The position numbers and the translations under genes are program-made. Below the pieces are notes generated by a model. That model made no database searches and had not been told where the DNA came from. It was given only the letters and a program-made list of their open reading frames with translations. Below are positions 396 to 51,039 of a stretch of 51,039 bases of DNA, piece after piece (position 1 is the stretch's first letter; each line of letters opens with the position of its first letter). Origin of the DNA: an uncultured Spirochaetaceae bacterium (GTDB lineage: Bacteria > Spirochaetota > Spirochaetia > Treponematales > Treponemataceae); contig CACYWZ010000010.1 of NCBI GenBank assembly GCA_902778325.1, positions 1 through 51,039 of the forward strand, in the 5' to 3' direction.

Positions 396-595
396 TTCCC
401 CAAACTTGGGCAGAGCTTCCCCGAAGTTGGGCGGCGTTTCCCCAAAGTTGGGCGAGGCTTCCCCAAAGTTGGGCAGAGCTTCCCCAAAGTTGGGCGAGCG
501 TTCCCCAAACTTGGGCGGGCTTTCCCCAAACTTGGGCGAGCGTTCCCCAAACTTGGGCAGACGTTCCCCAAAGTTGGGCGACGTTTCCCCAAAAA
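396..595. repeat. Tandem array, 21-bp period, core CCCAAASTTGGG (about 10 copies)
   Basis: The core palindrome CCCAAACTTGGG or CCCAAAGTTGGG repeats with its AAA/GAA starting at 402, 423, 444, 465, 486, 507, 528, 549, 570 and 591, always exactly 21 bp apart. Linkers vary slightly (GCGAGCGTTC, GCAGAGCTTC). Because 21 is divisible by 3, the array is open in several frames on both strands, giving false heptad-repeat proteins. Closely related arrays are at 16337-16545 and 20131-20310. Confidence 0.95.
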
Positions 596-663
596 TTCTA
601 CTTGCTATTATTTATTAAAAAACACATACTATTTACATAAATATTGTTTCATTGGAGGGTTGT

Positions 664-978
664 ATGAGTAAACTTTCATTGTCTGATGAACTTACGACGG
701 CTCGGCTTTTGGCTGAGGGGATTAAGAATCGTGCGGATTCTGTGGCGAAAGTCGGCTTGACTGCGGACAAAGCGGCAGAAATCGAGGCTCTGGTTTCAAA
801 GTTGACCACTCTCGACAATCAGCAGGAGGAGCTAAAAGCGCAGCTCAAGGAAAAGACTGCGGAGCTTGACGGCGTTCAGCAAACGCTTCGCTCGACTGTT
901 GCCGAAACAAGAAAACTTGTAAAGATAGCCGTGGATAAAGCTGGCTGGGTTGCCTTCGGCATTTCCGACAAGCAATAA
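664..978 (+). CDS. Small coiled-coil protein, function unknown
   Basis: This encodes 104 residues starting at ATG 664, chosen because GGAGGG at 654-659 is well placed; a TTG at 652 in the same frame lies inside that ribosome binding site. The middle (about residues 30-80) is rich in Leu, Glu, Lys and Gln in a heptad-like pattern (KAAEIEALVSKL, QQEELKAQLKEKTAEL), so a coiled coil is likely. There is no signal peptide or membrane segment. It is followed by an acidic membrane protein and a DUF1963 protein on the same strand. I do not recognise a family. Confidence 0.75.
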   Translation: MSKLSLSDELTTARLLAEGIKNRADSVAKVGLTADKAAEIEALVSKLTTLDNQQEELKAQLKEKTAELDGVQQTLRSTVAETRKLVKIAVDKAGWVAFGISDKQ

Positions 979-1082
979 CGGTCGATGACCGCTTTGTAAG
1001 GCATGGGTATAGTTTGCGAAAACAGGCTGTGCCTGTGCCTTTTTTGTAAAATGGACTTTTCTCGACGGAGATAAGAAAAAAA

Positions 1083-2153
1083 ATGGAACGAGAAGATAAA
1101 ATCTTGACAGCGATTTTCGAGCAATCAAGGAAAGAAGGCTCTGACAACAATATTAAAAAAGAAGAAAAAGATGACTTTTGTGATGAGAACTTTTCAGCAA
1201 AGCAGAGTATTTTCAGCGCTGAAGTTCAAGAAAAGGACGATGAGAGTGAGGACGGCTCTTATGAAATCAGCGCTTCTGAAAGCGAGGACGAGGAAAGCGA
1301 GGAAAATGACGACTCACAAAGCGACATTCATTTTGCAGAGCCCAGGCTTTACAACAAAAAGGGAACAGAGGAAAACTCATGCGGTTTTGTCCTGAAGGAA
1401 GGCGTGTTCACGGCGCTTCCGATTGAGCCTGAGGACTATTTTCTCCTCATAAATGACAAAAACGAGAAAGTAGAAGCGTCGGAGTGGCTCTTGTTTTTGC
1501 ATGACAGCAATGACAAGGCGGTTTGCGTTCTGGATTATTACAAGGCAATTCAGGCTCTGAAAAACTTGGCGGTTTATGGCGAAAAATACTTACTCTTTGA
1601 ACAGGACGGCTTTGTTTTTACGAACCGCTTTTCCAAAAAAGATTTTATTGAGCTGACAAATGAAGTTGTCAATCTTGAAAACGAGGAAAGGGACAAAGAG
1701 GACACTGCTTGGAGTCCAAATCCTGCGACAGCCGCAGGCAGAATGGCGTACTGGATTCAAAGCTATCATCTTTTTATCATGATGTGGCTTTTGGTCTTGA
1801 GCATTCACTGTCCTGCGATGTACGATTTTGGAGGCTTTGCAAGCGTCCTGAAATCAGCCGCCCTGAGTGCCGCTTTTCTTGGAGCGAGCTTTCTTTCGGG
1901 CTTTTTGGGCTTGTATTTGCTGAAGCCTGTTCTGAAGATGTTCGATATTGGGATTTTTCGCTTTTGCATTTATTCTGCTCATTTTGTGATGGTGGCGTTC
2001 GTGATTGGCTTTGTGGCAGACTTGATTTTCTTGCAATCCCCGATTGTCTTTCTTGGTCAGAACCTTGCAGCAATCAGTTCCGTTCCGCTTGGGCTTTTGC
2101 TTGCCTCCATCGCTGTTTTCAAAAAGGAATACAATAAATTACAAAGGAGATAA
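1083..2153 (+). CDS. Acidic protein with C-terminal membrane segments, unknown function
   Basis: This encodes 356 residues with ribosome binding site GGAG at about 1067. Residues 25-90 are very rich in Glu, Asp and Ser (for example ESEDEESEENDD) and probably disordered. A globular cytoplasmic part of about 100 residues follows. From about residue 228 there are roughly four hydrophobic stretches, beginning YHLFIMMWLLVLS and ending near GLLLASIAVF, so the C-terminus is an integral membrane domain. The stop is 2 bp before the next start, indicating co-expression with the DUF1963 gene. I see no known catalytic motif. Confidence 0.8.
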   Translation: MEREDKILTAIFEQSRKEGSDNNIKKEEKDDFCDENFSAKQSIFSAEVQEKDDESEDGSYEISASESEDEESEENDDSQSDIHFAEPRLYNKKGTEENSCGFVLKEGVFTALPIEPEDYFLLINDKNEKVEASEWLLFLHDSNDKAVCVLDYYKAIQALKNLAVYGEKYLLFEQDGFVFTNRFSKKDFIELTNEVVNLENEERDKEDTAWSPNPATAAGRMAYWIQSYHLFIMMWLLVLSIHCPAMYDFGGFASVLKSAALSAAFLGASFLSGFLGLYLLKPVLKMFDIGIFRFCIYSAHFVMVAFVIGFVADLIFLQSPIVFLGQNLAAISSVPLGLLLASIAVFKKEYNKLQRR

Positions 2154-2155
2154 TT

Positions 2156-3079
2156 ATGGCTAAAAATGGTCTTTCATTTTTTCAAAACATTGCTTTAAAG
2201 CTTGAGAAAGTCCCGTACAGCAAAAAGACTTCGCTCAAGATTTTGGACGAGGTGAAGAGGCGGACTCTCACGGACGCAGTGAAGCTCTATGCGGAATGCG
2301 GCGAAGACGATGAGCCTTTGGAGTTGACCGACAGCAAACTCGGCGGCTTTCCGTATTGGGTCAAGGGCAAGGAGTATCCGAAGGCGAAGGACGACGGAAC
2401 GCCGCTCGTGCTTTTGGCGCAAATCAACTTTGAGCAGCTTCCTTCCCTCCCCGACTTTCCGACAAAGGGCATTTTGCAGTTTTTCGCAAAGGCTGATTCG
2501 CATTATGGCTGTGAGTTTTTCAAGTTGAACGATGAGCGCTGGAGATGCGTCTTTCACGAGGAAATCGGAGAGCCGATGTCTGTCGAGGAGCTAAAAGCGC
2601 TTGGCGTTAAAAGCGCCGCTGACTTGGACAGCGAAAAAGAGGAATATTTCCCGATTCACACGGAGTTTTTGCTGTCGGGCGAAAAGACTCAAGTGTCCAT
2701 GTCGTCGGCTTGCGAGGGAAGATTCGAGAGCGTCGTTCGCGATGTCGCCAAGGATTTTGGGCTAAAAGAGGCGGACGAGGCGCTTGTTGCTTGCAACATC
2801 TTGGACGAGGACGCGATGGAGTCGTATTGGGACGACTGTGAGCAAGGAAGCAAAATCGGAGGCTATCCGTCTTTCACTCAGGAAGACCCGCGAAAGGCTG
2901 ACGACGGCTACGATGTGCTTTTGCTCCAGATTGACAGCGAATCTGCAAGCTCTGAGGACGCATCTCCTCGTGATGATATTATGTGGGGCGATATGGGAAT
3001 CGCGAACTTTTTTATAAAAAAAGAAGATTTAATCAATCGTGATTTTTCAAAGGTGCTCTACAACTGGGACTGCTACTAA
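2156..3079 (+). CDS. DUF1963 (YwqG-like) protein
   Basis: This encodes 307 residues with AAAGGAG before ATG 2156. It has the landmarks shared by all DUF1963 proteins here: DSKLGGFPYW and a basic 'KGKEYPK' stretch near residue 70, LLAQINFEQLP, LPDFPTKGILQFF, a 'KIGGYPSFTQ' motif, LLLQIDS, and an end matching WGDMGIANFFI with C-terminal WDCY. The family is beta-rich and without a demonstrated enzymatic function; a member (YwqG) sits beside a toxin operon in Bacillus. There is no BRCT head, unlike the paralogues at 13767, 16641 and 18647. Its N-terminus (KVPYSKKTS) matches the C-terminal domain of the mosaic protein at 7290, so the two share a recent ancestor. Confidence 0.88.
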   Translation: MAKNGLSFFQNIALKLEKVPYSKKTSLKILDEVKRRTLTDAVKLYAECGEDDEPLELTDSKLGGFPYWVKGKEYPKAKDDGTPLVLLAQINFEQLPSLPDFPTKGILQFFAKADSHYGCEFFKLNDERWRCVFHEEIGEPMSVEELKALGVKSAADLDSEKEEYFPIHTEFLLSGEKTQVSMSSACEGRFESVVRDVAKDFGLKEADEALVACNILDEDAMESYWDDCEQGSKIGGYPSFTQEDPRKADDGYDVLLLQIDSESASSEDASPRDDIMWGDMGIANFFIKKEDLINRDFSKVLYNWDCY

Positions 3080-3089
3080 AAGAGCGTTT

Positions 3090-3136
3090 ACTGAGCGAAG
3101 TCGAAGCAGAGACCCCGAAACAAGTTCGGGGTGACA
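3090..3136. repeat. Dispersed hairpin element between convergent genes
   Basis: A 'CTGAGCGAAGTCGAAG' piece is followed by arms ACCCCGAA (3112-3119) and TTCGGGGT (3125-3132), a perfect 8-bp stem. Compared with the copy near 273, both arms changed together (ATTCCGAA to ACCCCGAA), so pairing is kept. It lies between converging genes and could act as a transcript end for both. Confidence 0.7.
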
Positions 3137-3144
3137 GAATATCT

Positions 3145-4965
3145 TTAGAACTCAGGAAGATAATCTACAATTTCGGCATCTCCGTCTTCTTCAAAGCGCA
3201 AGGCGTCTGCGTCGAATCTGTATTTTTGAGTAATCGTGAAAGGGTTTTCTTTTTCCCCTGTTTCCAAATTCCGACTCCAATAGCCGTAGTTGAAAACCTC
3301 AAGAAACTCTGGCTCTCCTGTTGTTTCAGACATTTCCAAACGGTAAGAGCTGTTCATCTCAGCACATTCTTCCTGTGAACCGCCGAATCTGCCAAGAGAA
3401 AACGCCGTGCCGTTATCGCGAACTGCGTAAATAGCATAAATCGAGTAGTCATCGTCCCAAGAAAATGGATAATACTCAAAGACGCAAAGATAAGATTCGG
3501 TTCCTTTTAGATAAAATTGCTCAAACTGCGAAAGAGAGAGCCAATCGCGATTGTGACCCAACGAAATTGGCTCGCTTTCAAAATGCATTTCGTTTTCGAC
3601 AAAGCCTGTATCGAGTTTTCGCATTTTCTTGTTTTTGAAATCGTACTCATACAAATCTGCAAAATATTCGCTCTCATTTGTGTAAATATAGTTTATGTAT
3701 TTGTAATTGACAAACAGCTTGATTGTATCCGTTTTTGCACTAATTCCCCAATGCGCTCCCATAGGAAGCTCTCCGTGACACAAAGCAGAGCCGCCAACAA
3801 TGCCGACTTTGTCTTTAAAGCGAACAAGATAGAAATTGTAGCGAGTATAATATTTTTCTGTGCTGTCAGGATTGTATTCATCGTACTCAAAAAGGCTGTT
3901 GTATGGCTGTTCGCCATATCTGTCGCTAAGCAATTCCACAATTTCCACTTCGTCAGCAGGATTAAGAAGAGTCTTTGTGCCGTCGGGCAGGAACATCTCG
4001 CTCTGGCAAACCACAATCGGAGTGTCCCCGCGGGCGAACTCTTTCTGCGTGAGCAAAATCGTTTGTTTGTCTTCTGACATCTCAGTCAAGGCTTCAGCCG
4101 CAAGTTCACGGTCATTTTGTGTTTGAGCGAGATATTCTACACACTGAGAGATGAGGCTTGGAACATCATAACGGCAAAGGGCAAGCATTTCCTTGATTGC
4201 GTCGTTCTGGCAATCGTCAATGTAATCGATGATTGAGCGACCTTCGTTGTCCTTGTGGTTCAAATCGTCAAGATTTTCATTTTTGCTTCTTTCATAAAAA
4301 TACTTTACGGCTTCGATGTTCATAGATTTTACGGCAAGCATAAGGCACGAACGCCCTTCGCTGTCGTAGGCTCTCATATCGCCTTGGTCGAACCAACTCA
4401 AAATCTGCTCGTTTGCGAAAGGTATCAAAAGATGAAGAGGGTTCGTTGTGTTTGGAGTCAAGCCAGCAACATCTTGGAATTTTGGCAAAACCAAAGAGAC
4501 AATGTCGTCGTCCAAATCCGCAGTTTGCAATTTGTCGCCGAAGCGCTCCAAAAGCGGAGGAAGACGCTCAACAGCCTCTTCGTTTGAAAAGTGTTCAAAT
4601 TCGTACTTGAACAAAATCTTTGAATTTTCGTCGCCGTCAAGAGCAAGGTTCACGGTTTTGTCAAAGATTTCAGTGTTCAGCGTTACGAATGACAGCGGAA
4701 TCCAGCCAGTTTTTTCTGCGTTGTCTTCGTCTTTGAACTTGACTTTCAGATGTTCGCCCGACTGCTCGATAATTGTGAGTTTTGTGTAAACAGGCAGTTT
4801 TGAAGCAATTTGCTCCGTTTCCTCTGCGTCTGAAAAAACAGGAGCCGGGAAATTTGGGAACACCACGCAGTCAGCGATTGGCGATATGTTTTGAGTTTTT
4901 TGTTTGCAACTTGCAAGAAAAAACGCCAAAAGAAAAATGGTTGTTACTCTAAAAAAGTTTCTCAT
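3145..4965 (-). CDS. Lipoprotein with SH3-like and ankyrin-repeat segments
   Basis: This encodes 606 residues. The N-terminus MRNFFRVTTIFLLAFFLASC is a lipoprotein signal with Cys20 as the likely lipidated residue, so the protein is probably periplasmic or surface exposed. Residues about 50-100 (LPVYTKLTIIEQSGEHLKV, then TGWIPLSFV) resemble a bacterial SH3 domain. Residues about 195-270 carry ankyrin-like units (DSEGRSCLMLAVKSMNIEAV, DNEGRSIIDYI). The rest is a large beta-rich region that I do not recognise. It is transcribed toward the DUF1963 gene at 2156. The partner bound by the repeats is unknown. Confidence 0.8.
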   Translation of the reverse strand: MRNFFRVTTIFLLAFFLASCKQKTQNISPIADCVVFPNFPAPVFSDAEETEQIASKLPVYTKLTIIEQSGEHLKVKFKDEDNAEKTGWIPLSFVTLNTEIFDKTVNLALDGDENSKILFKYEFEHFSNEEAVERLPPLLERFGDKLQTADLDDDIVSLVLPKFQDVAGLTPNTTNPLHLLIPFANEQILSWFDQGDMRAYDSEGRSCLMLAVKSMNIEAVKYFYERSKNENLDDLNHKDNEGRSIIDYIDDCQNDAIKEMLALCRYDVPSLISQCVEYLAQTQNDRELAAEALTEMSEDKQTILLTQKEFARGDTPIVVCQSEMFLPDGTKTLLNPADEVEIVELLSDRYGEQPYNSLFEYDEYNPDSTEKYYTRYNFYLVRFKDKVGIVGGSALCHGELPMGAHWGISAKTDTIKLFVNYKYINYIYTNESEYFADLYEYDFKNKKMRKLDTGFVENEMHFESEPISLGHNRDWLSLSQFEQFYLKGTESYLCVFEYYPFSWDDDYSIYAIYAVRDNGTAFSLGRFGGSQEECAEMNSSYRLEMSETTGEPEFLEVFNYGYWSRNLETGEKENPFTITQKYRFDADALRFEEDGDAEIVDYLPEF

Positions 4966-5004
4966 ATGCGAAATATAGCATAATCAGAGTTTTTGTAAAG
5001 GCTT

Positions 5005-5535: not shown

Positions 5536-5609
5536 GACTCATCTCCCAAAATCAATTTTGCAGAAGTATATTTTGTCTTGTTCCAAAAAGCAAGATTTTT
5601 CTCAGTTTC

Positions 5610-5732
5610 CGAACTTGGAAAAACAATTCCGAACTCGGAGGAACAATTTCCAAACTTGGAAAAACAATTTCCAAACTTGGAGGAACAATTTCCAAACTTG
5701 GAAACTCTTTCTCCGAACTTGGAAAGAGAATT
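5610..5732. repeat. Tandem array, 21-bp period, core TTCCAAACTTGGAA
   Basis: The central motif (GAACTTGG, GAACTCGG or AAACTTGG) starts at 5611, 5631, 5652, 5673, 5694 and 5715; spacings are 20, 21, 21, 21 and 21. The core TTCCAAACTTGGAA is a perfect palindrome, differing from the core at 402 (CCCAAACTTGGG) only in its outer bases. It fills the 258-bp gap between two minus-strand genes. The single 20-bp spacing is one missing T. Confidence 0.95.
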
Positions 5733-5738
5733 TCCGTA

Positions 5739-5800
5739 ATGCTGAACAAGTTTTCAGCATCCAGAGCGTACATAGATATGGACTGAACAAGACTCAGCAA
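5739..5800. repeat. Dispersed hairpin element (ATGCTGAA type)
   Basis: Arms ATGCTGAA (5739-5746) and TTCAGCAT (5753-5760) flank a short loop. A degraded copy follows with TACATAGATATGGACTGAACAA. It lies next to the 21-bp array, as most such elements in the window do. Confidence 0.6.
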
Positions 5801-6954: not shown

Positions 6955-6993
6955 TTGTTAAAACTCCTTTTATTTCAGTATTAGTCAGATACT

Positions 6994-7218: not shown

Positions 7219-7289
7219 TGTGAAATTATGGCAAAAAAATAAAAACTCCTATATATTTTCTGAAAATGGACTAAAGGAGAAACAGAAAA

Positions 7290-11245: not shown

Positions 11246-11315
11246 CGACGATGTCAAGGAACTCTTCCTTGATGTTAAGGAATCATTCCTTGAGATTCCG
11301 AAACGAGTTCGGAAT
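11246..11315. repeat. Two-copy 21-bp repeat followed by a dispersed hairpin
   Basis: TCAAGGAACTCTTCCTTGATG is followed 21 bp later by a second TTCCTTGA copy (CCTT at 11267 and 11288). Then arms ATTCCGAA (11295-11302) and TTCGGAAT (11308-11315) form a perfect stem. This is the same pairing of array seed plus hairpin seen at 197-293. Confidence 0.7.
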
Positions 11316-16325: not shown

Positions 16326-16336
16326 GAGAAAGACTT

Positions 16337-16548
16337 GCCCAACTTCGGGGAACGTCCGCCCAACTTTGGGAGCGTTTGCCCGACTTTGGGGAAGCCTCGC
16401 CCAACTTTGGGGAGCGTCTGCCCAACTTTGGGGAAAGCTTGCCCGACTTTGGGGGAAGTCTGCCCAACTTTGGGGAAGCCTCGCCCAACTTTGGGGAGCG
16501 TCTGCCCGACTTTGGGGAACGTCTGCCCGACTTTGGGGAAGGAAAGCC
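16337..16548. repeat. Tandem array, 21-bp period, GCCCAACTTTGGGG type (10 copies)
   Basis: GCCC starts at 16337, 16358, 16378, 16399, 16420, 16441, 16462, 16483, 16504 and 16525: eight spacings of 21 and one of 20, where one G is missing. It begins only 11 bp after the LRR gene's stop and ends at a dispersed hairpin. It belongs to the same family as 396-595 and 20131-20310. Confidence 0.95.
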
Positions 16549-16616
16549 GTCATGCTGAACTCGTTTCAGCATCTGCGGTTATCATACATAGATTCCGAAT
16601 CAAGTTCGGAATGACA
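16549..16616. repeat. Dispersed hairpin element, two stems
   Basis: The first stem has arms ATGCTGAA and TTCAGCAT. After TACATAG comes a second stem with arms ATTCCGAA and TTCGGAAT, then GACA. The adjoining ATATATAACAGGAGAAACAG leader is shared with the BRCT gene at 13767. Confidence 0.75.
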
Positions 16617-16640: not shown

Positions 16641-17771
16641 ATGGAAAGCGTATGTTTTACGGGCGCGTGCCCTGACATGACAAGAGAGGAACTGACCGAA
16701 ATGGCAGAGGAAAAGTTTGAGGTGAAGACGAGCGTGACGAAGGATTTGGATATCCTCGTGTGCGCTGACCCGAACGCAGGAAGCTCAAAGCTTGAGAAAG
16801 CCAAGAAGAACGGAACGCTCATTATCAGCTACGAGGAGTTTCAAGAGATTCTCGACGAGGATGAATATGAGGGCTTTTATTCAATCTTACAGACGAGGAA
16901 GATTCTGAAGTATATCCGAGAGAAATACGCAATGGAGTGCGTCCGCATAAAGCCAAAGAAGGCAGAGTCGCCGCTTTTGATGACGGCGAGCAAGTTCGGA
17001 GGGCTTCCGTACTGGACGGCTGTCGAGGAATACCCGAAGGACAAGGACGGAAACATGCTCACGCTCCTCGCGCAAATAAACTTTGCTGACGTTCCTCATC
17101 TTCCTGATTATCCAGAAAAGGGACTTTTGCAGATTTTCATTCTTGCAGACCTCTCGCTAGGGCGCGACATGGACGATGACGGGACAACACAGAATTACTG
17201 GAGAGTCGTGTGGAGAGAGGACGTGGACGACTCTCTTGCCCTCAGTGCGGACGCGCTTCACGAGATGGGCGTTCAGAGCGCAGAGGAAATCATGCAGAAA
17301 GAACATGAAAGGCGGGACAGCCAAATGAAGAGCGGAAAGAAACTCACCCTCGAACACGATTTCCCGCTCGAAAAAGAGTATGCGCTGACGTTTGAAAAGG
17401 GCATTTCCCACCCGAACCAGATGCTTTCGGAGTACAACGATATGGCAACGAGCGCCGCAAAAGAGTTGGGATATCCCGTCTACGAAGACCCGCAAGGCTC
17501 GTTCTCCGAAGATTTGGACATGAACGATTATTTTTGCGAGGACTCAAAAGACGGCACTCTTCACCAGATTGGAGGTTATCCGTTCTTCACGCAGCGCGAC
17601 GGCAGAAGCGAAGACGAGGATGAAGTCCTGCTGCTCCAGATTGACAGCGAATACAATACGGACATCAACATCAGCTTTGGCGACGACGGAATCGCGAACT
17701 TTTTCATCACCCCAGAAGCCCTCAAGAAGCGCGATTTTTCAAAAGTCCGCTACTACAGCGACTGCTACTAA
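16641..17771 (+). CDS. BRCT-DUF1963 fusion protein (copy 2)
   Basis: This encodes 376 residues; ATG 16641 follows AGGAG. The BRCT head (VCFTGACPDMTREELTEMAE, KTSVTKDLDILVC, GSSKLEKAKKNGTLIISY) spans residues 1-70. DUF1963 starts near residue 100 (TASKFGGLPYWTAVEEYPK, LLAQINFADVPHLPDYPEKG, HQIGGYPFFTQRDGR, DEVLLLQIDSE, GDDGIANFFITPEALKKRDF), ending SDCY. The tail is closer to copy 3 (18647) than to copy 1, sharing 'NYWRVVWREDVD' and 'LSADALHEMGVQSA'. It is probably cytoplasmic, with no enzymatic motif seen. Confidence 0.9.
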   Translation: MESVCFTGACPDMTREELTEMAEEKFEVKTSVTKDLDILVCADPNAGSSKLEKAKKNGTLIISYEEFQEILDEDEYEGFYSILQTRKILKYIREKYAMECVRIKPKKAESPLLMTASKFGGLPYWTAVEEYPKDKDGNMLTLLAQINFADVPHLPDYPEKGLLQIFILADLSLGRDMDDDGTTQNYWRVVWREDVDDSLALSADALHEMGVQSAEEIMQKEHERRDSQMKSGKKLTLEHDFPLEKEYALTFEKGISHPNQMLSEYNDMATSAAKELGYPVYEDPQGSFSEDLDMNDYFCEDSKDGTLHQIGGYPFFTQRDGRSEDEDEVLLLQIDSEYNTDINISFGDDGIANFFITPEALKKRDFSKVRYYSDCY

Positions 17772-18390: not shown

Positions 18391-18510
18391 CTCAAAGGAA
18401 CTCTTCCTTGATGTCGAGGAACTTCTCCTTGAGGTCGAGGAAACTCTCCTTGAGGTCGAGGAACTTCTCCTTGAGGTCAAGGGAACTCTCCTTGAGGTCG
18501 AGGGGAAAGA
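18391..18510. repeat. Tandem array, 21-bp period, core AAGGA...TCCTT (5 copies)
   Basis: CCTTGA starts at 18406, 18427, 18448, 18469 and 18490, exactly 21 bp apart each time. Each unit has AAGGA or GAGGA on the left and TCCTTGAGGTC on the right, so an imperfect dyad. Two-copy versions of this unit are at 197-240 and 11246-11293. It lies in the 306-bp gap before BRCT copy 3. Confidence 0.95.
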
Positions 18511-18516
18511 AAAGCC

Positions 18517-18586
18517 GTCATGCTGAACTCGTTTCAGCATCTGCGGTTATCATACATAGATTCTGAAAACTTGTTCGCCAATGACA
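18517..18586. repeat. Dispersed hairpin element, two stems
   Basis: The first stem has arms ATGCTGAA and TTCAGCAT. A second, weaker one (TTCTGAAAACTTGTTCGCCA) ends in ATGACA. It is nearly the same as the elements at 14895 and 16549. Confidence 0.7.
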
Positions 18587-18646: not shown

Positions 18647-19711
18647 ATGGAAAGCGTATGTTTCACGGGCGCGTGCCCAGACATGACAAGAGCGGAACTG
18701 ACCGAAATGGCAGAGGAAAAGTTCGAGGTGAAGACGAGCGTCACGAAGGATTTGGATATTCTTGTGTGCGCAGATCCAAGCGCAGGAAGCTCAAAGCTTG
18801 AGAAAGCCAAGAAGAACGGGACTCGCATCATCAGCTACGAGGATTTTCTTGAGATGCTCGAAAGCGATGATGATGAGGACGAGGACGGCGAGGACGGCAT
18901 GTACAGTGAGGAGCAGGCAATGGAAATCATATGGAGAATAAACGACACGATGGAAAAAGAGGCGATTCGCATAAAGACGCACGAAGCTGAATCGCCTCTT
19001 TCGATGACGGCGAGCAAGTTCGGAGGGCTTCCGTATTGGACGGCTGGCGAGGAGTACCCGAAAGACGATGACGGAAATGAGCTAACGCTCCTCGCGCAAA
19101 TCAACTTTTCGGACGTTCCGCACTTGCCTGATTATCCTGAAAAAGGGCTTTTGCAGTTTTTCATTCTTGCAGACTCATCAGTATGGCTTGATATGGAAGG
19201 AACGACGCAGAATTACTGGCGTGTCGTGTGGCGTGAGGACGTGGACGAATCGCTTGCCCTCAGTGCGGACGCGCTTCACGAGATGGGCGTTCAGAGTGCG
19301 GCGGAAGTCGTTGATGATGGGCGAGATTTCCCGTTCAGCGAGGAGTTTTCGCTGTCGTTTGAAAAGAGCCTCTCACACCCGAACTATATGCTTTGGGATT
19401 ACGATGAGATGGTGAAGAGGGCTGCAAAAGAGCTGGGATACCCCGTTCACGAAGACGCAAGCGAGGCTTTTCCCGAAGATTTTCGCGACGACCATATGTT
19501 CGATATGTTTGATGCCGAGCAACACCAGATTGGAGGCTATCCAAACTTCTCGGTATACGATATCAGAAACGAGGACGAAGTTCTTCTGCTCCAGATTGTC
19601 AGCGACGAGGATATTGCTTGGGGCGACAGCGGAATCGCAAACTTTTTCATAAAGCCAGAAGATTTAAAGAAGCGCGATTTTTCAAATATCCTCTGTACTT
19701 GTAGCTACTAA
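18647..19711 (+). CDS. BRCT-DUF1963 fusion protein (copy 3)
   Basis: This encodes 354 residues; AGGAGGAAGAG precedes ATG 18647. The BRCT head covers residues 1-72 (same landmarks as copy 1, with DPSAGSSKLEKAKK). An acidic linker (ESDDDEDEDGEDG) leads to DUF1963 from about residue 105 (TASKFGGLPYWTAGEEYPK, LLAQINFSDVPHLPDYPEKG, HQIGGYPNFSVYDIR, DEVLLLQIVSDE, WGDSGIANFFIKPEDLKKR). The C-terminus is CTCSY and not the usual WDCY. The head is nearly identical in DNA to copies 1 and 2. Function unknown; cytoplasmic. Confidence 0.9.
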   Translation: MESVCFTGACPDMTRAELTEMAEEKFEVKTSVTKDLDILVCADPSAGSSKLEKAKKNGTRIISYEDFLEMLESDDDEDEDGEDGMYSEEQAMEIIWRINDTMEKEAIRIKTHEAESPLSMTASKFGGLPYWTAGEEYPKDDDGNELTLLAQINFSDVPHLPDYPEKGLLQFFILADSSVWLDMEGTTQNYWRVVWREDVDESLALSADALHEMGVQSAAEVVDDGRDFPFSEEFSLSFEKSLSHPNYMLWDYDEMVKRAAKELGYPVHEDASEAFPEDFRDDHMFDMFDAEQHQIGGYPNFSVYDIRNEDEVLLLQIVSDEDIAWGDSGIANFFIKPEDLKKRDFSNILCTCSY

Positions 19712-20063: not shown

Positions 20064-20103
20064 AAAAAGGCTCAGGAGAAATCCTAAGCCTTTTGTTTTT
20101 CTT
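20064..20103 (+). terminator. Rho-independent terminator
   Basis: AAAAGGCTCAGGA pairs with TCCTAAGCCTTTT around a GAAA loop with one mismatch, followed by a T-rich run (GTTTTTCTTTG). It begins right after the stop of the small membrane protein. Confidence 0.85.
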
Positions 20104-20105
20104 TG

Positions 20106-20130
20106 TCATACTGAACTCGTTTCAGCATCT
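20106..20130. repeat. Dispersed hairpin element (half)
   Basis: GTCATACTGAACTCGTTTCAGCATCTGC is the left half of the two-stem element and is joined directly to a 21-bp array. Confidence 0.65.
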
Positions 20131-20312
20131 GCCCAAGTTCGGGGAAAGCCCGCCCAACTTTGGGGAAAGTTCGCCCAACTTTGGGGAAGCCTCGCCCAAC
20201 TTTGGGGAAGCCTCGCCCAAGTTCGGGGAAAGTTCGCCCAACTTTGGGGAAGTCCCGCCCAACTTTGGGAAAGCCCCGCCCAAGTTCGGGGAAAACTCGC
20301 CCAACTTTCTAG
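20131..20312. repeat. Tandem array, 21-bp period, GCCCAACTTTGGGG type (9 copies)
   Basis: GCCC starts at 20131, 20152, 20173, 20194, 20215, 20236, 20257, 20278 and 20299, with no irregular spacing. The last unit runs into the stop codon of dapL. The array lies between convergent genes, after the terminator. Confidence 0.95.
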
Positions 20313-25660: not shown

Positions 25661-25913
25661 TGATGATAGTTTGGCTCTAAAAATCACAATCCCAGCACAT
25701 TTTGATGATAGTTTAGGCTCTAAAATCACATTCTCAGAGCATTATGATGATAGTTTTGCTCATAAGCACAGAGATTTTCATCATTATGATGATACTTTAG
25801 CACTAAAAATTACATTCTCAGCACCAAAACTATCACACTTTTGTTCATATCGTTGATACTTTTGGTCAAAATGATGATATTTTTGGTCGAAATGGTGATA
25901 CTTTTATACTTGG
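25661..25913. repeat. Tandem array mixing 42-bp and 21-bp units (TGATGATA type)
   Basis: TGATGATA or a variant starts at 25661, 25703, 25745, 25787, 25851, 25872 and 25893. Spacings are 42, 42, 42, 64, 21 and 21. An inverted copy (CCAAAACTATCACAC) lies at 25824-25838, inside the irregular interval. The longer units add a CTCTAAAATCACATTCTCAG segment. The array sits in the 692-bp gap 25464-26155 between two minus-strand genes; 25464-25660 shows nothing else I can name. Confidence 0.85.
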
Positions 25914-29874: not shown

Positions 29875-29954
29875 AAAAATATTTTTAACGTTAACACGTC
29901 TTTTGTCAACGGTAGACTTTTCCTTACTTAACGAAAAAAATCTTTTTTCTTTTG

Positions 29955-30168
29955 TTAAGCGCACTTAATGAAAAAAATTTTTTTTTCTCGTTAAGTGCAC
30001 TTAATGAGCTCACTTTTTTTCTGGCGAGTCATTAAGTGGACTTAACGGCTTCCTTTTTTTTCTGGGACGCAATTAAGTGGACTTAACGGCCTCCTTTTTT
30101 TTCTGGCGGGCAATTAAGTGCGCTTAATGCCTTCCTTTTTTTTCTGGGACGCAATTAAGTCGAGTTAA
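29955..30168. repeat. Tandem array, 41-bp period, palindrome TTAAGTGSACTTAA (about 6 copies)
   Basis: TTAAG palindromes start at 29955, 29991, 30032, 30073, 30114 and 30155; the last four spacings are exactly 41 bp. Variants are TTAAGTGCACTTAA, TTAAGTGGACTTAA and TTAAGTGCGCTTAA. Each is followed by GCTTCC, a T tract of 7-9 and TCTGGGACGC or TCTGGCGGGC. Half-sites continue upstream to about 29890. It fills the 433-bp divergent space between the membrane protein gene and the flgN operon. Confidence 0.95.
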
Positions 30169-30245
30169 CGACCTGCTTTGATTTTTCTTTTCGTCAAGCG
30201 CGGAAGGAAGTCGAAAGAATGGGGAAAATTGGGCAAAAGCGCTTC

Positions 30246-41846: not shown

Positions 41847-41861
41847 AAAACCATCAGTCCA

Positions 41862-42722: not shown

Positions 42723-42729
42723 AATTTTT

Positions 42730-45618: not shown

Positions 45619-45693
45619 TATTTTCTCTCCATGAAGTAAAAGAAAGTTATCATAAATGTCATTCGTCGTTTTAAAGCGGGCAATTACTTTTTG

Positions 45694-46356: not shown

Positions 46357-46418
46357 ACGGAATATGTTAATAAGTTTATCAATGAGTGGCAATAGCAGTT
46401 TTTTTCCGAAAAGCACGG

Positions 46419-46500
46419 TCATTGAGCGTAGTCGAAATGAGCGAACTTGTTTCTGAGCTTCAGCTCCCTTCGACTCCGCTCAGGGTACGGCTCAGCAACC
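46419..46500. repeat. Dispersed inverted element (TTGAGCGTAGTCGAAATGAG / CTTCGACTCCGCTCAGGG)
   Basis: The GAGCGTAGTCGAA piece near 46426 is inverted as TTCGACTCCGCTCAGG near 46469-46484, making a roughly 60-bp palindrome. Same pieces as at 338-380 and 25941-26138. Confidence 0.6.
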
Positions 46501-46550
46501 GTACACGCACTTTTTTCATTGAAATCGAATATATCTCCTTTGATTTCACA

Positions 46551-46755
46551 CAGCAAACAAATGTCTAAAATGTACATTGAACGCTGGCACTCAGCGGAGC
46601 AATGTCTTAAATGTACATTGAAGCCTGAGGCTCAGCAGACGAAATTTAGTTTGTTAGAAGCTTCCCTGAGGGTCAGCGAACGAAATTTAGTTTGTTCGAG
46701 ACTCGGAATTCTCCCAGCAAACGAGATTTTGTTCAAAAATGTCATTGGAGAACTC
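46551..46755. repeat. Tandem array, 41-bp period (5 diverged copies)
   Basis: CAGC followed by RRAC or GAGC starts at 46551, 46592, 46633, 46674 and 46715, exactly 41 bp apart. The inner sequence changes in pairs: copies 1-2 carry AAATGTACATTG (palindrome AATGTACATT), copies 3-4 carry GAAATTTAGTTTGTT, copy 5 GAGATTTTGTT. Without the fixed period it would pass as unique sequence. It lies in the 589-bp gap 46357-46945. Confidence 0.85.
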
Positions 46756-46779
46756 GTTTCGGAAGTTGCAAAAGCCTAA

Positions 46780-46903
46780 AATGCGGATGCTGAAAACTTG
46801 TTCAGCATGACGCTCACCTGTCATTGGAGAACTTGTTTCGGAATCTGTGCTTCGGCTACGTTCAGCAACCAGCGGATGCTGAATCAAGTTCAGCATGACA
46901 CGC
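46780..46903. repeat. Dispersed hairpin elements (ATGCTGAA types)
   Basis: GGATGCTGAAAACTTGTTCAGCATGAC near 46786 and GGATGCTGAATCAAGTTCAGCATGAC near 46873 are two hairpins with the same arms and different loops. Between them lie TTGGAGAACTTGTTTCGGAA and a CTTCGGCTACGTTCAGCAAC piece. Confidence 0.7.
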
Positions 46904-46945
46904 ACATTTTGACTCGAGTGCGCGCAATAGAAGTTTTTCTTTATC

Positions 46946-47848
46946 TCATTCAAAATAATGCTCAATTGTGTAATCTTTTGCCGCATTGTAAAAATCATAT
47001 TCGATTTTCTTTCCGCCCACGCCCAGAACAATTCCGATTTCGTTGTACGAGGGAGATATTTTTAACATATTTTGGTCTCCAAGTATTTTTATTCTGTCAA
47101 GCCAACGTTTTGTGTTTTTCTCAAATCCTCTTTCCAAATATTCAAAATCGCAACAATCAAAGAAGCCGTTTTTTACATTTTGCATTTCATATTCATATTT
47201 TCTGCGAAAATAAAAAGCATTATCTCTTGTGTAAACTTTTCTCTCACGCGCTGAGATTTTTCGGTCCAGCATTTTTTTCAGCGCATCAATTTCCGAAAGC
47301 AATTTTTTTATTTTTATTCCGCAAAACTTCGCGACGCAAGAAATTTGAAAATCGGTAATGTAATAGCACGCTTTGAGCGCCAAAATGTGCATTATTAGTT
47401 TCATCTTTTTCGTTTCTTCTCTGTCTTTTTTGCGCACGTCCGCAAAAGGATTCTTTCTATAAACACATTCTCTTTCGGCAATTTCTTCTTCCACAGAACA
47501 TTCACAGTCACCATAAATCTCTTTCTCCGCAGCAAGAGCGTAATATGTGTAAGATTCATTGATACTTTTTATTGCAATCTTCCGTTTCCAAGTTCGTATT
47601 TCTTTCAAAAGCCCATAGCGCAAAAAGACAGTAAAAGCGCCTGCACTCTTATTAAAGCGGGAAATAATTCCAAAAATGCGATTGTAATTATAGAGCAAAA
47701 AATCCATCTTGTTGTCGTAATCCAGAGGAATATATGATGGGTGAGAGACTATAAAAAATTGAGCTATATTCCAAAAAGTAGCGTTCTTGGTGCTTTTGCC
47801 ACTAACAAAATCGTCATAAACACGTTCAAGGTCAATTTCGTTTTTCAT
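46946..47848 (-). CDS. Unknown protein, possibly a divergent sigma-70-like factor
   Basis: This encodes 300 residues, mostly helical and basic. Residues about 45-90 (MDFLLYNYNRIFGIISRFNK, then AFTVFLRYGLLKEIRTWKRK) resemble sigma-70 region 2, where a core-binding helix is followed by a conserved 'FxxYLxxxLxxxxxxxRRK' helix. Near the end, ISPSYNEIGIVLGVGGKKIE resembles a region-4 helix-turn-helix. The middle is Lys/Cys-rich. There is no signal peptide. This is pattern inference only; other helical DNA- or RNA-binding folds would fit. The 41-bp array lies directly downstream. Confidence 0.5.
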   Translation of the reverse strand: MKNEIDLERVYDDFVSGKSTKNATFWNIAQFFIVSHPSYIPLDYDNKMDFLLYNYNRIFGIISRFNKSAGAFTVFLRYGLLKEIRTWKRKIAIKSINESYTYYALAAEKEIYGDCECSVEEEIAERECVYRKNPFADVRKKDREETKKMKLIMHILALKACYYITDFQISCVAKFCGIKIKKLLSEIDALKKMLDRKISARERKVYTRDNAFYFRRKYEYEMQNVKNGFFDCCDFEYLERGFEKNTKRWLDRIKILGDQNMLKISPSYNEIGIVLGVGGKKIEYDFYNAAKDYTIEHYFE

Positions 47849-47960
47849 AGTAACTTAATTTTGAGTCTTGAACAAAAATAAAACAAAATCGCAACAGTTC
47901 CAGAAAAAAATACTGCTGCGATTCTATTTATGATATCTAGATTTGTGAAATACGATATTA

Positions 47961-48944
47961 TTAAAGAACTTTTGCAAATTCTTTCAGGATTTGAGGAATA
48001 AGCGTATCAATTTTTCCTTCAACACTTAATCCTGAAGCGTTTTTATGTCCGCCGCCTCCGAACTTTGCGGCAATAGCGCTGACGTCAACAGCATTTTTTG
48101 AGCGGAAGCCAGCTGTGCAAGTGTTTTCTGTTTCCTGTCTTACAAAAAGAACAGCCTCAACACCTTCCACAGCAAGCAGTAGCGAATAAAGAGCATCAGA
48201 ATCGCGTCCTTCAGCACCAAACTTTTTTGTGTCTTCCATTGTTTCGTAAGTTACGCAAAGTTTGTTGTTGAAATATCTTTCTGTTCTCGAAAGCATCACA
48301 GCAAGCAATTTTCTTGTCAAAAACGGCTTTCCGCCAGACATTTCATCATAGATTTTTCGAGGATTAGCACCATCTTCCACAAGTCGAGCGGCGCTTTTGA
48401 ACACTTCCGCAGAATCTTCTGAGAGGAAACGGAAATGACCTGTGTCTGTTGAAAGCCCGAAGAACAATTGCTTTGCAACGTTTTTATCGGCTTTTCCAAC
48501 AAGGCGCTCGTAAAGCTGCTGGACAATCAAGCATGCAGCAGGCGCACTCGGGTCAATGATATAAGACGCCCAAGAAGCATCGGCGGTTTTGTGATGGTCA
48601 ACGATAAACGTGTCAAAGCCCTTCAAATCGCCATCAATATCGCCCAATCGTGACAATTCTGAGCAATCCACAATGATAAGCCCTGTTCTGTTCCGCTCGT
48701 CCTGCGTCATAAAATCAAGTGCATTCGTGAAATTTGTGGCATATTTTTTGATTTCAGGACGCTTGAAAGGACCTGCTGAAATCAGTTGATACTGCTTTCC
48801 AAAATGTGAAATAAGCGCCGCCATTCCAATACAACAGGAAACACAGTCACCGTCAGGTTCTTTATGCCCTGCAATAATAAAAAACTCGTGAGAATCGACA
48901 AACGCCTTAAAGTTTTCGCACTGTTCGTCATCAAGGATTTGCAT
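47961..48944 (-). CDS. nrnA: DHH-family phosphoesterase (NrnA-like nanoRNase/pAp phosphatase)
   Basis: This encodes 327 residues. Landmarks: GHKEPDGDCVSCCIGMAALI (residues about 21-40, metal ligands), LIIVDCSELSRLGDID, the DHH-motif VDHHKTADASWASYI, and DHHA1 end FGGGGHKNASGLSVEG. NrnA-type enzymes degrade nanoRNA and dephosphorylate pAp; some relatives cleave cyclic dinucleotides, and the sequence alone does not decide between these. Cytoplasmic and Mn-dependent by family. Confidence 0.9.
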   Translation of the reverse strand: MQILDDEQCENFKAFVDSHEFFIIAGHKEPDGDCVSCCIGMAALISHFGKQYQLISAGPFKRPEIKKYATNFTNALDFMTQDERNRTGLIIVDCSELSRLGDIDGDLKGFDTFIVDHHKTADASWASYIIDPSAPAACLIVQQLYERLVGKADKNVAKQLFFGLSTDTGHFRFLSEDSAEVFKSAARLVEDGANPRKIYDEMSGGKPFLTRKLLAVMLSRTERYFNNKLCVTYETMEDTKKFGAEGRDSDALYSLLLAVEGVEAVLFVRQETENTCTAGFRSKNAVDVSAIAAKFGGGGHKNASGLSVEGKIDTLIPQILKEFAKVL

Positions 48945-49030
48945 TTAATTATTCCTTCAGATTATAAAAAAATGTAATTGCGCAACAGTCTAAAGGAAAA
49001 AGCAAATCGTGTAAAGGAAGCGTATAAACT

Positions 49031-49069
49031 AAAAAACGCCCATGCTCATCTCAAGCACAGGCGCTTTTC
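49031..49069 (-). terminator. Rho-independent terminator
   Basis: On the minus strand GCGCCTGTGCTTGAGATGAG forms a hairpin with GCATGGGCGT, followed by TTTTTTAG. It serves the small secreted protein gene immediately upstream. Confidence 0.7.
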
Positions 49070-49087
49070 ATTCATTAACTAAGAAAA

Positions 49088-49501
49088 CTACTCTTCAAGT
49101 TCCACAGACTCAACACCTTCTGCAGAAATCTTTGAGCCGCGTCTCAAAATACCCCAAACACTGTCCATTTTGCTTTCAGGCAAGTTCAAAACAACTTTGT
49201 AGAAAGCACCGTCTTTCTTGATAACAGTGATGTACGGAGTCAACTGACGTGGAAGAAAACGAACCTGAAGCTGACATGGACGATCTTTGAGCCATTTTTT
49301 TGGAACAACAGTCTGTCCAATCGCAACTCCAGCCTTTGCATACTTTACAACATACGCATCGCTTGTTTCCAAAATTCTGTAAATAACAGCACTCTTGTAA
49401 GAGTATGCAGACTCATTATTACCATGCTTCCAACTGGCTGTAGCAAAAGTAGGCAATACCATGCAGAGTGTAACCAACGCTGCCAATACGAACTTCTTCA
49501 T
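49088..49501 (-). CDS. Small exported protein, unknown function
   Basis: This encodes 137 residues. MKKFVLAALVTLCMVLPTFA is a signal peptide with likely cleavage at TFA-TA near residue 20. The mature part is compact and rich in beta-type segments (AVIYRILETSDAYVVKYAKA, LQVRFLPRQLTPYITVIKK) and ends acidic (VESVELEE). AGGAA lies before the start. It lies 30 bp after argF on the same strand, followed by a terminator. No family recognised. Confidence 0.8.
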   Translation of the reverse strand: MKKFVLAALVTLCMVLPTFATASWKHGNNESAYSYKSAVIYRILETSDAYVVKYAKAGVAIGQTVVPKKWLKDRPCQLQVRFLPRQLTPYITVIKKDGAFYKVVLNLPESKMDSVWGILRRGSKISAEGVESVELEE

Positions 49502-49530
49502 GTTTTCCTTCCTTGTGGTCTTATAATGCC

Positions 49531-50487
49531 CTAAATAAGTGCGAGCATTATGGCCTTTATGGTATGCTTTCTGTTTTCAGCCTGCTCCCAGACCTTGCTC
49601 TGAGATGACTCGAAAACTTCTTCAGTAACTTCTTGACCTTTCACGGCAGGCAGACAATGCAAAAAGATAGATTCAGCATTTCCTGTCGAAGCCATCAAGT
49701 CCGAATTCACCTGAAAAGGGGAAAGCAGACGGGTGCGTTCATCCTTGAGCGCTTCTTCTCCCATTGAAACCCATACATCAGTATACAAGCAATTTGAACG
49801 TTTTACAACAGAAATTTCATCAGAAATCGAAATCTTAGCACCAGATTTTTCTGCAAACGGTTTTGAAATCTCAAGAATCTGCTTATCAGGGAACAATTCT
49901 TTCGGGCTATAGATTGCAAAATCAATGCCGAGTTTGGCGCAAATAAGCATAAGAGAGCGTGCGACATTGTTTCGACCATCGCCGCAGAAAGCCATCTTCA
50001 AACCTTTCAGATACCCAAAATGCTCCTTGAGCGTCATGACATCCGCAAGAGCCTGCGTTGGATGGAACTCGTCAGTAAGCCCATTTATCACAGGAATGCC
50101 TGAATATTGAGCAAGTTCCTCAACATGCTGCTGCTTGAAGCCACGGAACTCAATCGCGCTGAACATTCTGCCCAAAACACGAGCCGTATCGCGAACGCTC
50201 TCTTTTCCTCCAAGCTGAATATCGTCCGTCGACATAAAAACAGGGTGTCCGCCCTCCTCGCCAAACGCCGTCTCAAAAGAAGAGCGGGTTCGTGTCGAGC
50301 GCTTTTCAAAAATAAGCGCAATAGTTTTTCCCAAGAAGCGCTGATGGATTTCGCCCGCATGAGACTGCTTTTTCACCAAAATCGCATAATCCAAAATCTG
50401 CTCAATTTCCGAAGGCGTCCAATCAATCCAATTCAAAAGAGACCTGCCCTTGAACGGCGTTTCAAATTTTTCTATCTCGACAGCCAT
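49531..50487 (-). CDS. argF: Ornithine carbamoyltransferase
   Basis: This encodes 318 residues. It makes citrulline from ornithine and carbamoyl phosphate, or runs in reverse in the arginine deiminase pathway. Landmarks: carbamoyl-phosphate loop EKRSTRTRSSFETAFGEEGG (about residues 60-79), HPTQALADVMTLKEHFG, FCGDGRNNVARSL, YTDVWVSMGEE (ornithine loop with SMG) and HCLPA near residue 275. Length is typical. Whether it is biosynthetic or catabolic cannot be told because no other arg or arc gene is here. Confidence 0.96.
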   Translation of the reverse strand: MAVEIEKFETPFKGRSLLNWIDWTPSEIEQILDYAILVKKQSHAGEIHQRFLGKTIALIFEKRSTRTRSSFETAFGEEGGHPVFMSTDDIQLGGKESVRDTARVLGRMFSAIEFRGFKQQHVEELAQYSGIPVINGLTDEFHPTQALADVMTLKEHFGYLKGLKMAFCGDGRNNVARSLMLICAKLGIDFAIYSPKELFPDKQILEISKPFAEKSGAKISISDEISVVKRSNCLYTDVWVSMGEEALKDERTRLLSPFQVNSDLMASTGNAESIFLHCLPAVKGQEVTEEVFESSQSKVWEQAENRKHTIKAIMLALI

Positions 50488-50525
50488 AAATTTTTTCTCC
50501 TAAAATTCTCAATTTGACAAGTGAT

Positions 50526-50554
50526 ATTGTATATTTTTGCAAGAATTATGTAAA
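50526..50554 (-). promoter_or_regulatory. Probable sigma-70 promoter of argF
   Basis: On the minus strand TTTACA (50549-50554) and TACAAT (50526-50531) are separated by 17 bp, about 40 bases before the start codon; AGGAG lies closer to the gene. Confidence 0.5.
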
Positions 50555-50650
50555 GATGTGCAAGAATATGCAATTTTATCTTACCGTACCACTTTTTTCG
50601 GCAACATCAGTGCAAAAAGTATTAAGAACAGAAAAAATTTTATGCACGGC

Positions 50651-50679
50651 TTGACAAAAATTCAGAGTTTCTATAGAAT
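50651..50679 (+). promoter_or_regulatory. Sigma-70 promoter of the tRNA gene
   Basis: TTGACA (50651-50656) and TAGAAT (50674-50679) are 17 bp apart and lie 23 bases before the tRNA. Confidence 0.7.
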
Positions 50680-50701
50680 GCCAAACATCAAACGAAAACT
50701 T

Positions 50702-50774
50702 GGTGCTATAGTCCAGTTGGTAGAACAACGGACTCATATTCCGTATGTCATAGGTTCGAGTCCTATTAGCACCA
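50702..50774 (+). tRNA. tRNA with anticodon CAT (elongator Met, or Ile2)
   Basis: 73 nucleotides fold as a full cloverleaf. Acceptor arms are GGTGCTA and TAGCACC with discriminator A. The anticodon stem ACGGA/TCCGT carries loop CTCATAT, so the anticodon is CAT. The T arm is CATAG-GTTCGAG-TCCTATT-like, with GTTCGAG. CCA is not encoded. The G1-C72 pair argues against an initiator. Elongator Met is most likely; a lysidine-modified Ile2 cannot be excluded by eye. Confidence 0.9.
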
Positions 50775-50782
50775 ACTTTTAT

Positions 50783-50812
50783 AAGACTTCCTTTTTGGAA
50801 GTCTTTTTTTTG
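50783..50812 (+). terminator. Terminator after the tRNA
   Basis: AAGACTTCC (50783-50791) and GGAAGTCTT (50797-50805) form a perfect 9-bp stem with loop TTTTT, followed by more T. Confidence 0.9.
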
Positions 50813-50890
50813 CGCCGATGATTTTTTTTTATTTCGCGACATGGCAAGCAAAAAATTCTTGTTTTTTGCTTCCTTTTTTAAAATCCGACC

Positions 50891-51039
50891 AATAAATTCA
50901 AATTTATTGTCTCCTTTTTCTATGGATAGTAATTAAATTTAAATTTATTGCTTCCTTTTGACTTGGGGAGATAAAAAATTCAAATTTATTGGCTTCTTTT
51001 TCTATGGGTAGTAATTAAATTTGAATTTATTGCTTCCCT
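50891..51039. repeat. Tandem array, 41-bp period, palindrome AAATTYRAATTT (4 copies, runs off the window)
   Basis: AAATTC or AAATTT starts at 50894, 50935, 50976 and 51017, exactly 41 bp apart. Palindrome variants are AAATTCAAATTT, AAATTTAAATTT and AAATTTGAATTT. Between them lies GCTTCCTTTTTCTATGGGTA or TTTTGACTTGGGG. The spacer (TTCC, T tract, TCT, GGG) is nearly the same as in the array at 29955-30168, whose palindrome is different. Confidence 0.95.

What the first reader, a model, noticed from the sequence alone, without database searches (positions are those of the whole stretch)
396..51039. Intergenic tandem arrays of unrelated sequence share periods of 21, 42 or 41 bp, two or four helical turns
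At least eight arrays were measured by position: 396-595 (21), 5610-5732 (21), 16337-16548 (21), 18391-18510 (21), 20131-20312 (21), 25661-25913 (42 and 21), 29955-30168 (41), 46551-46755 (41) and 50891-51039 (41). Two-copy seeds lie at 210/231 and 11267/11288. Unit sequences differ between arrays but are homogenised within each, and most cores are dyads (CCCAAASTTGGG, TTCCAAACTTGGAA, AAGGA-TCCTT, TTAAGTGSACTTAA, AAATTYRAATTT). A coding constraint cannot explain this, since the arrays lie outside genes and 41 is not a multiple of 3. Dyads on one face of the helix, repeated every second or fourth turn, suggest co-operative protein binding, chromosome organisation, or an amplification mechanism with a built-in length ruler. 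I know of no described system with this constant period and changing core.
Basis: partly seen in the sequence, partly recalled or inferred. Interest (0 to 1): 0.88.

Follow-up and report, generated by a model that had tools for sequence, protein, structure and literature searches.

The report
Gene-linked palindrome arrays with fixed spacing
A gut Treponema carries many short, evenly spaced palindrome arrays that belong with two families of small uncharacterised proteins, each protein gene usually carrying its own array directly in front of it, which points to an undescribed kind of mobile genetic module.

Summary
The arrays are real and genome-wide. In 781 kb of this Treponema genome, 91 of 108 tandem arrays have periods of 21, 39-43 or 82-84 bp. 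In 80 loci of other Treponema (880 kb) there is none at 21, 40-43 or 82-84, and one at 39.

Genes for DUF6261 proteins (~235 aa) have a 40-43 bp array upstream in 55 of 62 non-redundant cases. Genes for an unnamed 104-aa protein (one at window 664-978) have an array upstream in 15 of 18, of 19-21 bp in 13. So the larger protein goes with the longer period. One DUF6261 subgroup has 42 bp in 17 of 17, against 4 of 38 others.

In the sample 85 of 91 arrays are solo; 39 of these match a gene-linked array (reversed control 0). Between sister species dyads change less than spacers, without indels. The gene-plus-array unit moves horizontally, occurs on phage contigs and, in the DUF6261 form, in Prevotella.

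Best reading: a DNA-binding protein with its own operator-like array, spreading as a module. Binding is inferred, not shown.

The parts
396..593 (+). 21-bp array (9.4 copies; core CCCAAASTTGGG), directly upstream of the 104-aa gene at 664
664..978 (+). class I gene: 104-aa alpha-helical protein, partner of 21-bp arrays; 70 bp after the array end
   Evidence: homologs in 10 of 201 genus genomes, array upstream in 15 of 18; AlphaFold2 helices 6-30 and 34-99
5606..5736 (.). 21-bp array (6.3 copies; core TTCCAAACTTGGAA), solo, no partner gene identified
11250..11293 (.). two-copy 21-bp repeat of the AAGGA-TCCTT type
16336..16541 (.). 21-bp solo array of the same family as 396-593
   Evidence: 83% identical over 198 bp to the region upstream of the gene at 664
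18395..18503 (.). 21-bp solo array, AAGGA-TCCTT family (six members in the sample)
20131..20308 (.). 21-bp solo array of the same family as 396-593, between convergent genes
25661..25905 (.). 42-bp array followed by a 21-bp array, solo
29926..30188 (.). 41-bp solo array (core TTAAGTGSACTTAA); matches the array upstream of a DUF6261 gene on contig C75 of the same genome (L298)
46551..46755 (.). degenerate 41-bp mosaic, seen by eye only
   Evidence: not reported by TRF
50862..51037 (.). 41-bp solo array (core AAATTYRAATTT) at the contig end; resembles by eye the array upstream of the DUF6261 gene in L301, but BLAST gave no match

Best explanation
The arrays belong to two-part genetic modules: a gene for a small alpha-helical protein, either DUF6261 (about 235 aa, class II) or an unnamed 104-aa protein (class I), preceded directly by an array of dyads. 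The dyad sequence differs between paralogs, while the period goes with the protein class: about 21 bp for the short protein, 41 or 42 bp for DUF6261. SHOWN: gene-array linkage, class-to-period match, dyads changing less than spacers without indels, solo arrays related to gene-linked ones, horizontal transfer of the unit. INFERRED: the protein, as an oligomer, binds its own dyads co-operatively on one face of the helix; the upstream array is its operator or nucleation site; solo arrays are further binding sites that spread with or through the protein; and the period is constant because the bound protein is the ruler.
For: Array upstream in 55 of 62 DUF6261 genes (periods 40-43 in all 55; 1 of 62 has a repeat downstream) and 15 of 18 class I genes (19-21 bp in 13, 40 and 42 in one each; 0 downstream). 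DUF6261 subgroup B has period 42 in 17 of 17, others in 4 of 38 (Fisher 9e-11, not corrected for descent). 39 of 85 solo arrays match one of 26 gene-linked regions, reversed control 0. G211/G081: dyads 0 of 119 changed, spacers 11 of 138, no indels, P 0.001. Split-half test: arms 12.3% against 22.1% elsewhere, 32 v 10 arrays. No strand-specific wobble. 9 of the 10 genomes with class I also have DUF6261, which 22 of 201 have. DUF6261 with 41-bp dyads also in Prevotella. Class I is mildly basic, median pI 8.7.
Against: No binding was tested. DUF6261 is mostly acidic (median pI 5.4), no DNA-binding domain is recognised, and PDB sequence and fold searches found no convincing relative. Protein and dyad similarity track only weakly (rho 0.22, 0 of 500 permutations) and not at all between 40 and 80% identity (rho -0.01, 272 of 500). 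The period could be inherited with the unit rather than imposed. 7 of 62 and 3 of 18 genes have no array by TRF, 46 of 85 solo arrays have no match, and some distant homologs lack arrays (Riemerella; L379).
Confidence: 0.55

Rival explanations
1. Selfish element of REPIN-RAYT logic: the protein, or a host recombinase it recruits, mobilises arrays; gene-linked arrays are autonomous copies and solo arrays non-autonomous ones, with no benefit to the host.
For: Solo arrays far outnumber gene-linked ones (85 v 6 in the sample); families are scattered over unlinked loci; the unit moves between species and sits on phage contigs; patchy distribution, DUF6261 in 22 of 201 genomes.
Against: No transposase motif recognised in either protein; no Y1 transposase in this genome; neither empty sites nor target duplications were established.
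Confidence: 0.25
2. The arrays bind a host factor (for example a nucleoid protein), and the linked genes are only regulated by them.
For: DUF6261 is mostly acidic and has no DNA-binding domain; some loci have promoter-like sites between array and gene (12 of 65 sense v 3 antisense at score 9 or more).
Against: One host factor would need to accept dozens of unrelated dyads (42 families); period follows the protein class; promoter scores do not exceed shuffles.
Confidence: 0.1
3. Type III toxin-antitoxin-like system: the array is transcribed as a repeat RNA that neutralises the protein.
For: Same order (tandem repeats directly upstream of a small protein gene), as described for ToxIN in passages of PMC8860590.
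Against: No G-U asymmetry in stems; terminator-like hairpin between array and gene in 4 of 70 (0 in shuffles); most sampled arrays are solo, in all orientations; no toxin family hit.
Confidence: 0.04
4. Plain mutational satellites: slippage and palindrome-correcting template switching make and homogenise arrays, and the period persists by inertia.
For: Higher-order periods of 63, 82-84 and 123-126 bp show block duplication.
Against: Near absence from most relatives while present where the two protein families are; upstream position relative to one gene; no indels between species while spacers diverge.
Confidence: 0.06

Closest known systems
REPIN/REP elements with RAYT (Y1 tyrosine) transposases
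   Same: A gene with its own palindromic repeats beside it, several coexisting repeat groups each with its own gene, and many extragenic copies without the gene (PMC3116915, passages)
   Different: No Y1 transposase match in this genome; arrays are tandem with a fixed period; proteins are unrelated helical families
Iteron arrays with plasmid Rep proteins (recalled)
   Same: Recalled: tandem repeats of about two helical turns directly upstream of the gene of their own binding protein
   Different: No Rep domain hit in the proteins scanned; arrays are chromosomal and mostly solo; the second class has four turns
Type III toxin-antitoxin systems (ToxIN)
   Same: Tandem repeats upstream of a small protein gene (PMC8860590, passages)
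   Different: DNA-level dyads without wobble, few terminators, no toxin family match
CGTC-tagged REP elements
   Same: Short palindromes in the same intergenic regions; CGTC repeats are reported for Spirochaetes (PMC3733652, passages)
   Different: Other sequence, not periodic, and only modestly associated with arrays (19 of 72 v 14 of 125 intergenic regions, P 0.009)

Membership tests
DUF6261 (PF19775) | profile match above Pfam's cut-off | tested here: met
   28 loci over the cut-off in this genome, 22 of 201 genus genomes; none seen in the window itself
REPIN-RAYT system | Y1 (HUH) transposase gene beside the repeats | tested here: not met
   PF01797: no match in this genome (94% complete), matches in 5 of 15 genomes searched
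REPIN-RAYT system | dispersed extragenic palindromes related to those beside the gene | tested here: met
   39 of 85 solo arrays, reversed control 0
Type III toxin-antitoxin | repeat array directly upstream of the protein gene | tested here: met
Type III toxin-antitoxin | terminator between repeats and gene | tested here: not met
   4 of 70 loci
Type III toxin-antitoxin | array acts as structured RNA | tested here: not met
   G-T no more frequent than A-C at stem mismatches; transcription itself not testable here
Iteron-Rep | Rep/winged-helix initiator encoded next to the repeats | tested here: not met
   no Rep family in Pfam scans
Iteron-Rep | protein binds the repeats | not testable with these tools
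   needs EMSA or footprinting

The most novel reading that the evidence does not exclude
A new class of mobile module in at least two bacterial phyla and on phages: paralogous small helical proteins, each with a private palindrome, form periodic protein-DNA assemblies on arrays whose repeat length is dictated by protein size (half-size protein 21 bp, DUF6261 41 or 42 bp). Dozens of such specificities coexist in one genome, each with its own set of solo arrays.
Probability: 0.4. Interest if true: 0.92.

Novelty: categorically new. Interest (0 to 1): 0.85.

Why it matters
DUF6261 has no assigned function; the one paper in the searched library that holds the name is, by its listing, on another subject. 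Here it gains a genomic signature that suggests what it does: its own upstream array with a class-specific period. If the proteins bind their arrays, this is a natural collection of protein-dyad pairs with diverging specificity, and a case where a DNA repeat length follows a protein rather than coding or chance. It would also explain why these bacterial satellites keep their period while their sequence changes, and it can be tested in harmless rumen Treponema.

Tried and rejected
Ideas rejected. RNA hairpins (wobble test). RAYT mobilisation. A trait of all Treponema. Elements tied to promoters or terminators of neighbours: ++19, --21, +-20, -+19 of the 79 arrays with genes on both sides. REP elements as carriers: association only modest. 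A third class behind the 22-24 bp arrays: no shared flanking partner gene found among 17 arrays (one orthologous pair from two sister species). Common ancestry of the two protein families: profile comparison negative.

Weak or failed steps. TRF misses degenerate arrays (L300, L292). The promoter scan did not beat shuffles. One search used a mistyped pattern and is not used for counts. Searches used a wrong reading frame (L290 minus strand) and mean nothing; redone with another DUF6261 protein. Viral-contig scans with two DUF6261 alignments found no relative. Class I had no match in the phage collection and group A DUF6261 none in plasmids. Before the counts I dropped four DUF6261 entries (one fused frame in L169, three fragments) and one class I fragment (L328); L169 and L328 do have arrays upstream. 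Ten literature searches of the open-access library listed no paper that describes this system as far as titles and abstract openings show; subscription papers are not covered. The second structure job had not finished and is not used. No DUF6261 structure was predicted: the tool does not admit proteins from these loci and I sent none.
Full report
The window and its genome. The window is one contig (C10) of a 3.35-Mb Treponema assembly in 173 contigs. It carries spirochaete flagellar genes (flgK, a flagellin-like gene, fliW, fliD). The nearest named relatives by FlgK are the MAG RUI287 (85%) and T. saccharophilum DSM 2985 (75%).

Checking the observation. TRF finds eight of nine arrays; the ninth is a mosaic seen only by eye. 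I sampled 781,314 bp of the genome: the window, 20 stretches and 20, some chosen because they adjoin known arrays. Of 108 clusters, 91 have base periods of 21, 39-43 or 82-84 bp; the 17 others include nine of 23 bp and three of 69 bp, the latter probably leucine-rich-repeat coding. Eighty FlgK loci of other Treponema (880,598 bp) have none at 21, 40-43 or 82-84 and one at 39; this control is one orthologous region, not a random sample. A further 305 kb from eight relatives has one 1.9-copy match of 21 bp and none at 40-43. Arrays lie mostly between predicted genes, in all orientations (++19, --21, +-20, -+19). Predicted frames that run through arrays probably do so because 21 and 42 are multiples of three.

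Anatomy. In 21-bp arrays two dyads interleave with centres mostly 10.5 bp apart; in 41/42-bp arrays the main dyad, often 7-bp arms around 3-4 bp, recurs once per unit. The best dyad of the consensus beats shuffles at P 0.05 in 25 of 91 arrays, so the dyad is clear in some arrays and worn or absent in others. Units form 42 families, 22 of them single. In L174 one array changes its main dyad while the other half of the unit continues. Stem mismatches show no strand-specific G-T excess (42 v 59; 42 v 43 on the sense strand of gene-linked arrays), so the palindromes look DNA-level. In a split-half test on the 42 arrays with enough copies and a clear dyad, arms mismatch at 12.3% and the rest at 22.1% (32 v 10 arrays, P 0.0009).

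From array to gene. A DNA search with a TTCCTTAAAATAAGGAA array found matches in 17 of 201 genus genomes, several weak. In the strong ones the dyad re-occurs every 40-41 bp while the 23-24-bp spacer differs. The dyad itself, with up to two mismatches, occurs 68 times here and 45 times in G082 against 1 and 0 for the reversed control, and about as often as the control in most others. Comparing neighbours, one gene lies directly downstream of the array in six loci; it encodes DUF6261. DUF6261 occurs in 22 of 201 Treponema genomes, in three genomes of other genera of the family, all with 41- or 42-bp arrays upstream, and at 28 places here. With non-redundant proteins, 55 of 62 DUF6261 genes have an array within 600 bp upstream, period 40-43 in all 55; one has a repeat downstream. 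Six of the 62 loci were reached through their arrays; without them it is 50 of 56. Close orthologs are included, so cases are not independent. One genome with a strong array match, G209, has no DUF6261 hit.

The 21-bp arrays have another partner. Seventy bases after the window's first array starts a gene for a 104-aa protein (664-978). Homologs occur in 10 of 201 genomes, nine of which also have DUF6261. Of 18 non-redundant genes, 15 have an array upstream: 19-21 bp in 13, 40 and 42 bp in one each; none downstream. AlphaFold2 on the single sequence gives helices 6-30 and 34-99 (pLDDT 83.5, pTM 0.44); Foldseek finds no solved relative. So a protein of less than half the length goes with half the period. 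Sequence profiles do not show the two families to be related. Within DUF6261, the subgroup at least 66% identical to L291 has period 42 in 17 of 17 and the rest in 4 of 38 (Fisher 9e-11, not corrected for descent).

Solo arrays. Of the 91 sampled arrays, 6 lie next to such a gene and 85 are solo. Thirty-nine of the 85 match the upstream region of one of 26 such genes of this genome (six class I, twenty DUF6261); reversed sequences match none; 46 have no match. In the window, 16336 and 20131 belong to the 104-aa gene's array family and 29926 to that of a DUF6261 gene on contig C75; 5606, 18395, 25661 and 50862 have no BLAST match.

Constraint. G211 and G081 are 95.7% identical over 7.1 kb. Their orthologous array has seven dyads with 0 of 119 positions changed against 11 of 138 in spacers, without indels (P 0.001). 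Two other species pairs point the same way without significance alone (1/70 v 7/104, P 0.15; 3/34 v 15/65, P 0.10), again without indels.

Mobility. The class I unit of T. saccharophilum and of contig C72 here share 639 of 652 aligned positions over array, gene and tail, against 68 of 200 just beyond the array, while FlgK is 75% identical. In two DUF6261 pairs between species, DNA similarity starts within about 10 bp of the stop codon and ends within or at the array (L277/L281, L313/L340); other pairs extend further or cover the gene alone. Neighbours of class I genes are not shared except in one sister pair (that script recognised the gene in 11 of 20 loci). In viral contigs two loci carry the class I gene with a 21-bp array upstream, one beside terminase and integrase genes, the other beside head genes. 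A class I homolog on a Riemerella record has no array (one of four records examined). In Prevotella nigrescens a DUF6261 gene follows five dyads 41 bp apart, if its start is the ATG at 2977 rather than the annotated 2839. A human-gut contig labelled phage has DUF6261 after five dyads spaced 41, 42, 41, 42; TRF does not report it and the motif was picked by eye, with weaker extra hits and 3.7 hits on average in shuffles. A second such contig with a distant DUF6261 has no visible array.

Mechanism. The best reading is that the protein binds its own dyads co-operatively and that its size sets the spacing. Against it: DUF6261 is mostly acidic (median pI 5.4), no DNA-binding domain is recognised, and protein and dyad similarity track weakly overall and not at all between 40 and 80% identity. 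A selfish, REPIN-like reading fits the solo arrays but lacks a transposase. A type III toxin-antitoxin reading fails the RNA and terminator tests. Linkage, the class-to-period rule and dyad constraint are the firm part; binding is inference.

Novelty. Ten searches of an open-access library listed no description of this system. I saw passages of three papers, otherwise listings. Statements on iterons are recalled.

Noticed in passing
L002 2258-2366, L008 7069-7143, L017 12659-12724, L173 18598-18663, L174 3656-3766, L178 731-813 and 9537-9602, L179 13646-13775: Intergenic arrays of 22-24 bp in the same genome, some with a TCCTNTAA...AGGA core; no shared partner gene was found. Possibly a third class.
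   Followed up: partly
window 16641-17768 and 18647-19708: Two paralogous BRCT plus DUF1963 genes each have a 21-bp array of a different family in the intergenic region before them.
   Followed up: no
L375 4680-4730 (T. saccharophilum plasmid pTS2), also L315: The class I unit follows a copy of a ribosome-binding site and gene start (ATGGGAGACGCATTGG) that recurs after the unit at the start of the next gene: perhaps a duplication made on insertion, perhaps neighbouring paralogs.
   Followed up: partly
L232 (G184) against L233 (G000:C25): G184 holds an array 100% identical over 227 bp to one of this genome; perhaps a mis-binned contig.
   Followed up: no
L206 (T. saccharophilum) 169-3259: Looks like a CRISPR array, repeat GTCGCACCCTCACGGGTGCGTGAATTGAAAC, period about 64-66.
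   Followed up: no
window 16551-16580, 18516-18545, 20102-20130: CGTC-type REP palindromes (GTCATGCTGAACTCGTTTCAGCATC) directly beside 21-bp arrays; genome-wide the association is modest.
   Followed up: partly
window 51037, L183 1-184, L170 11-265: Some contigs begin or end in or next to an array, so arrays may break the assembly and be under-counted.
   Followed up: no
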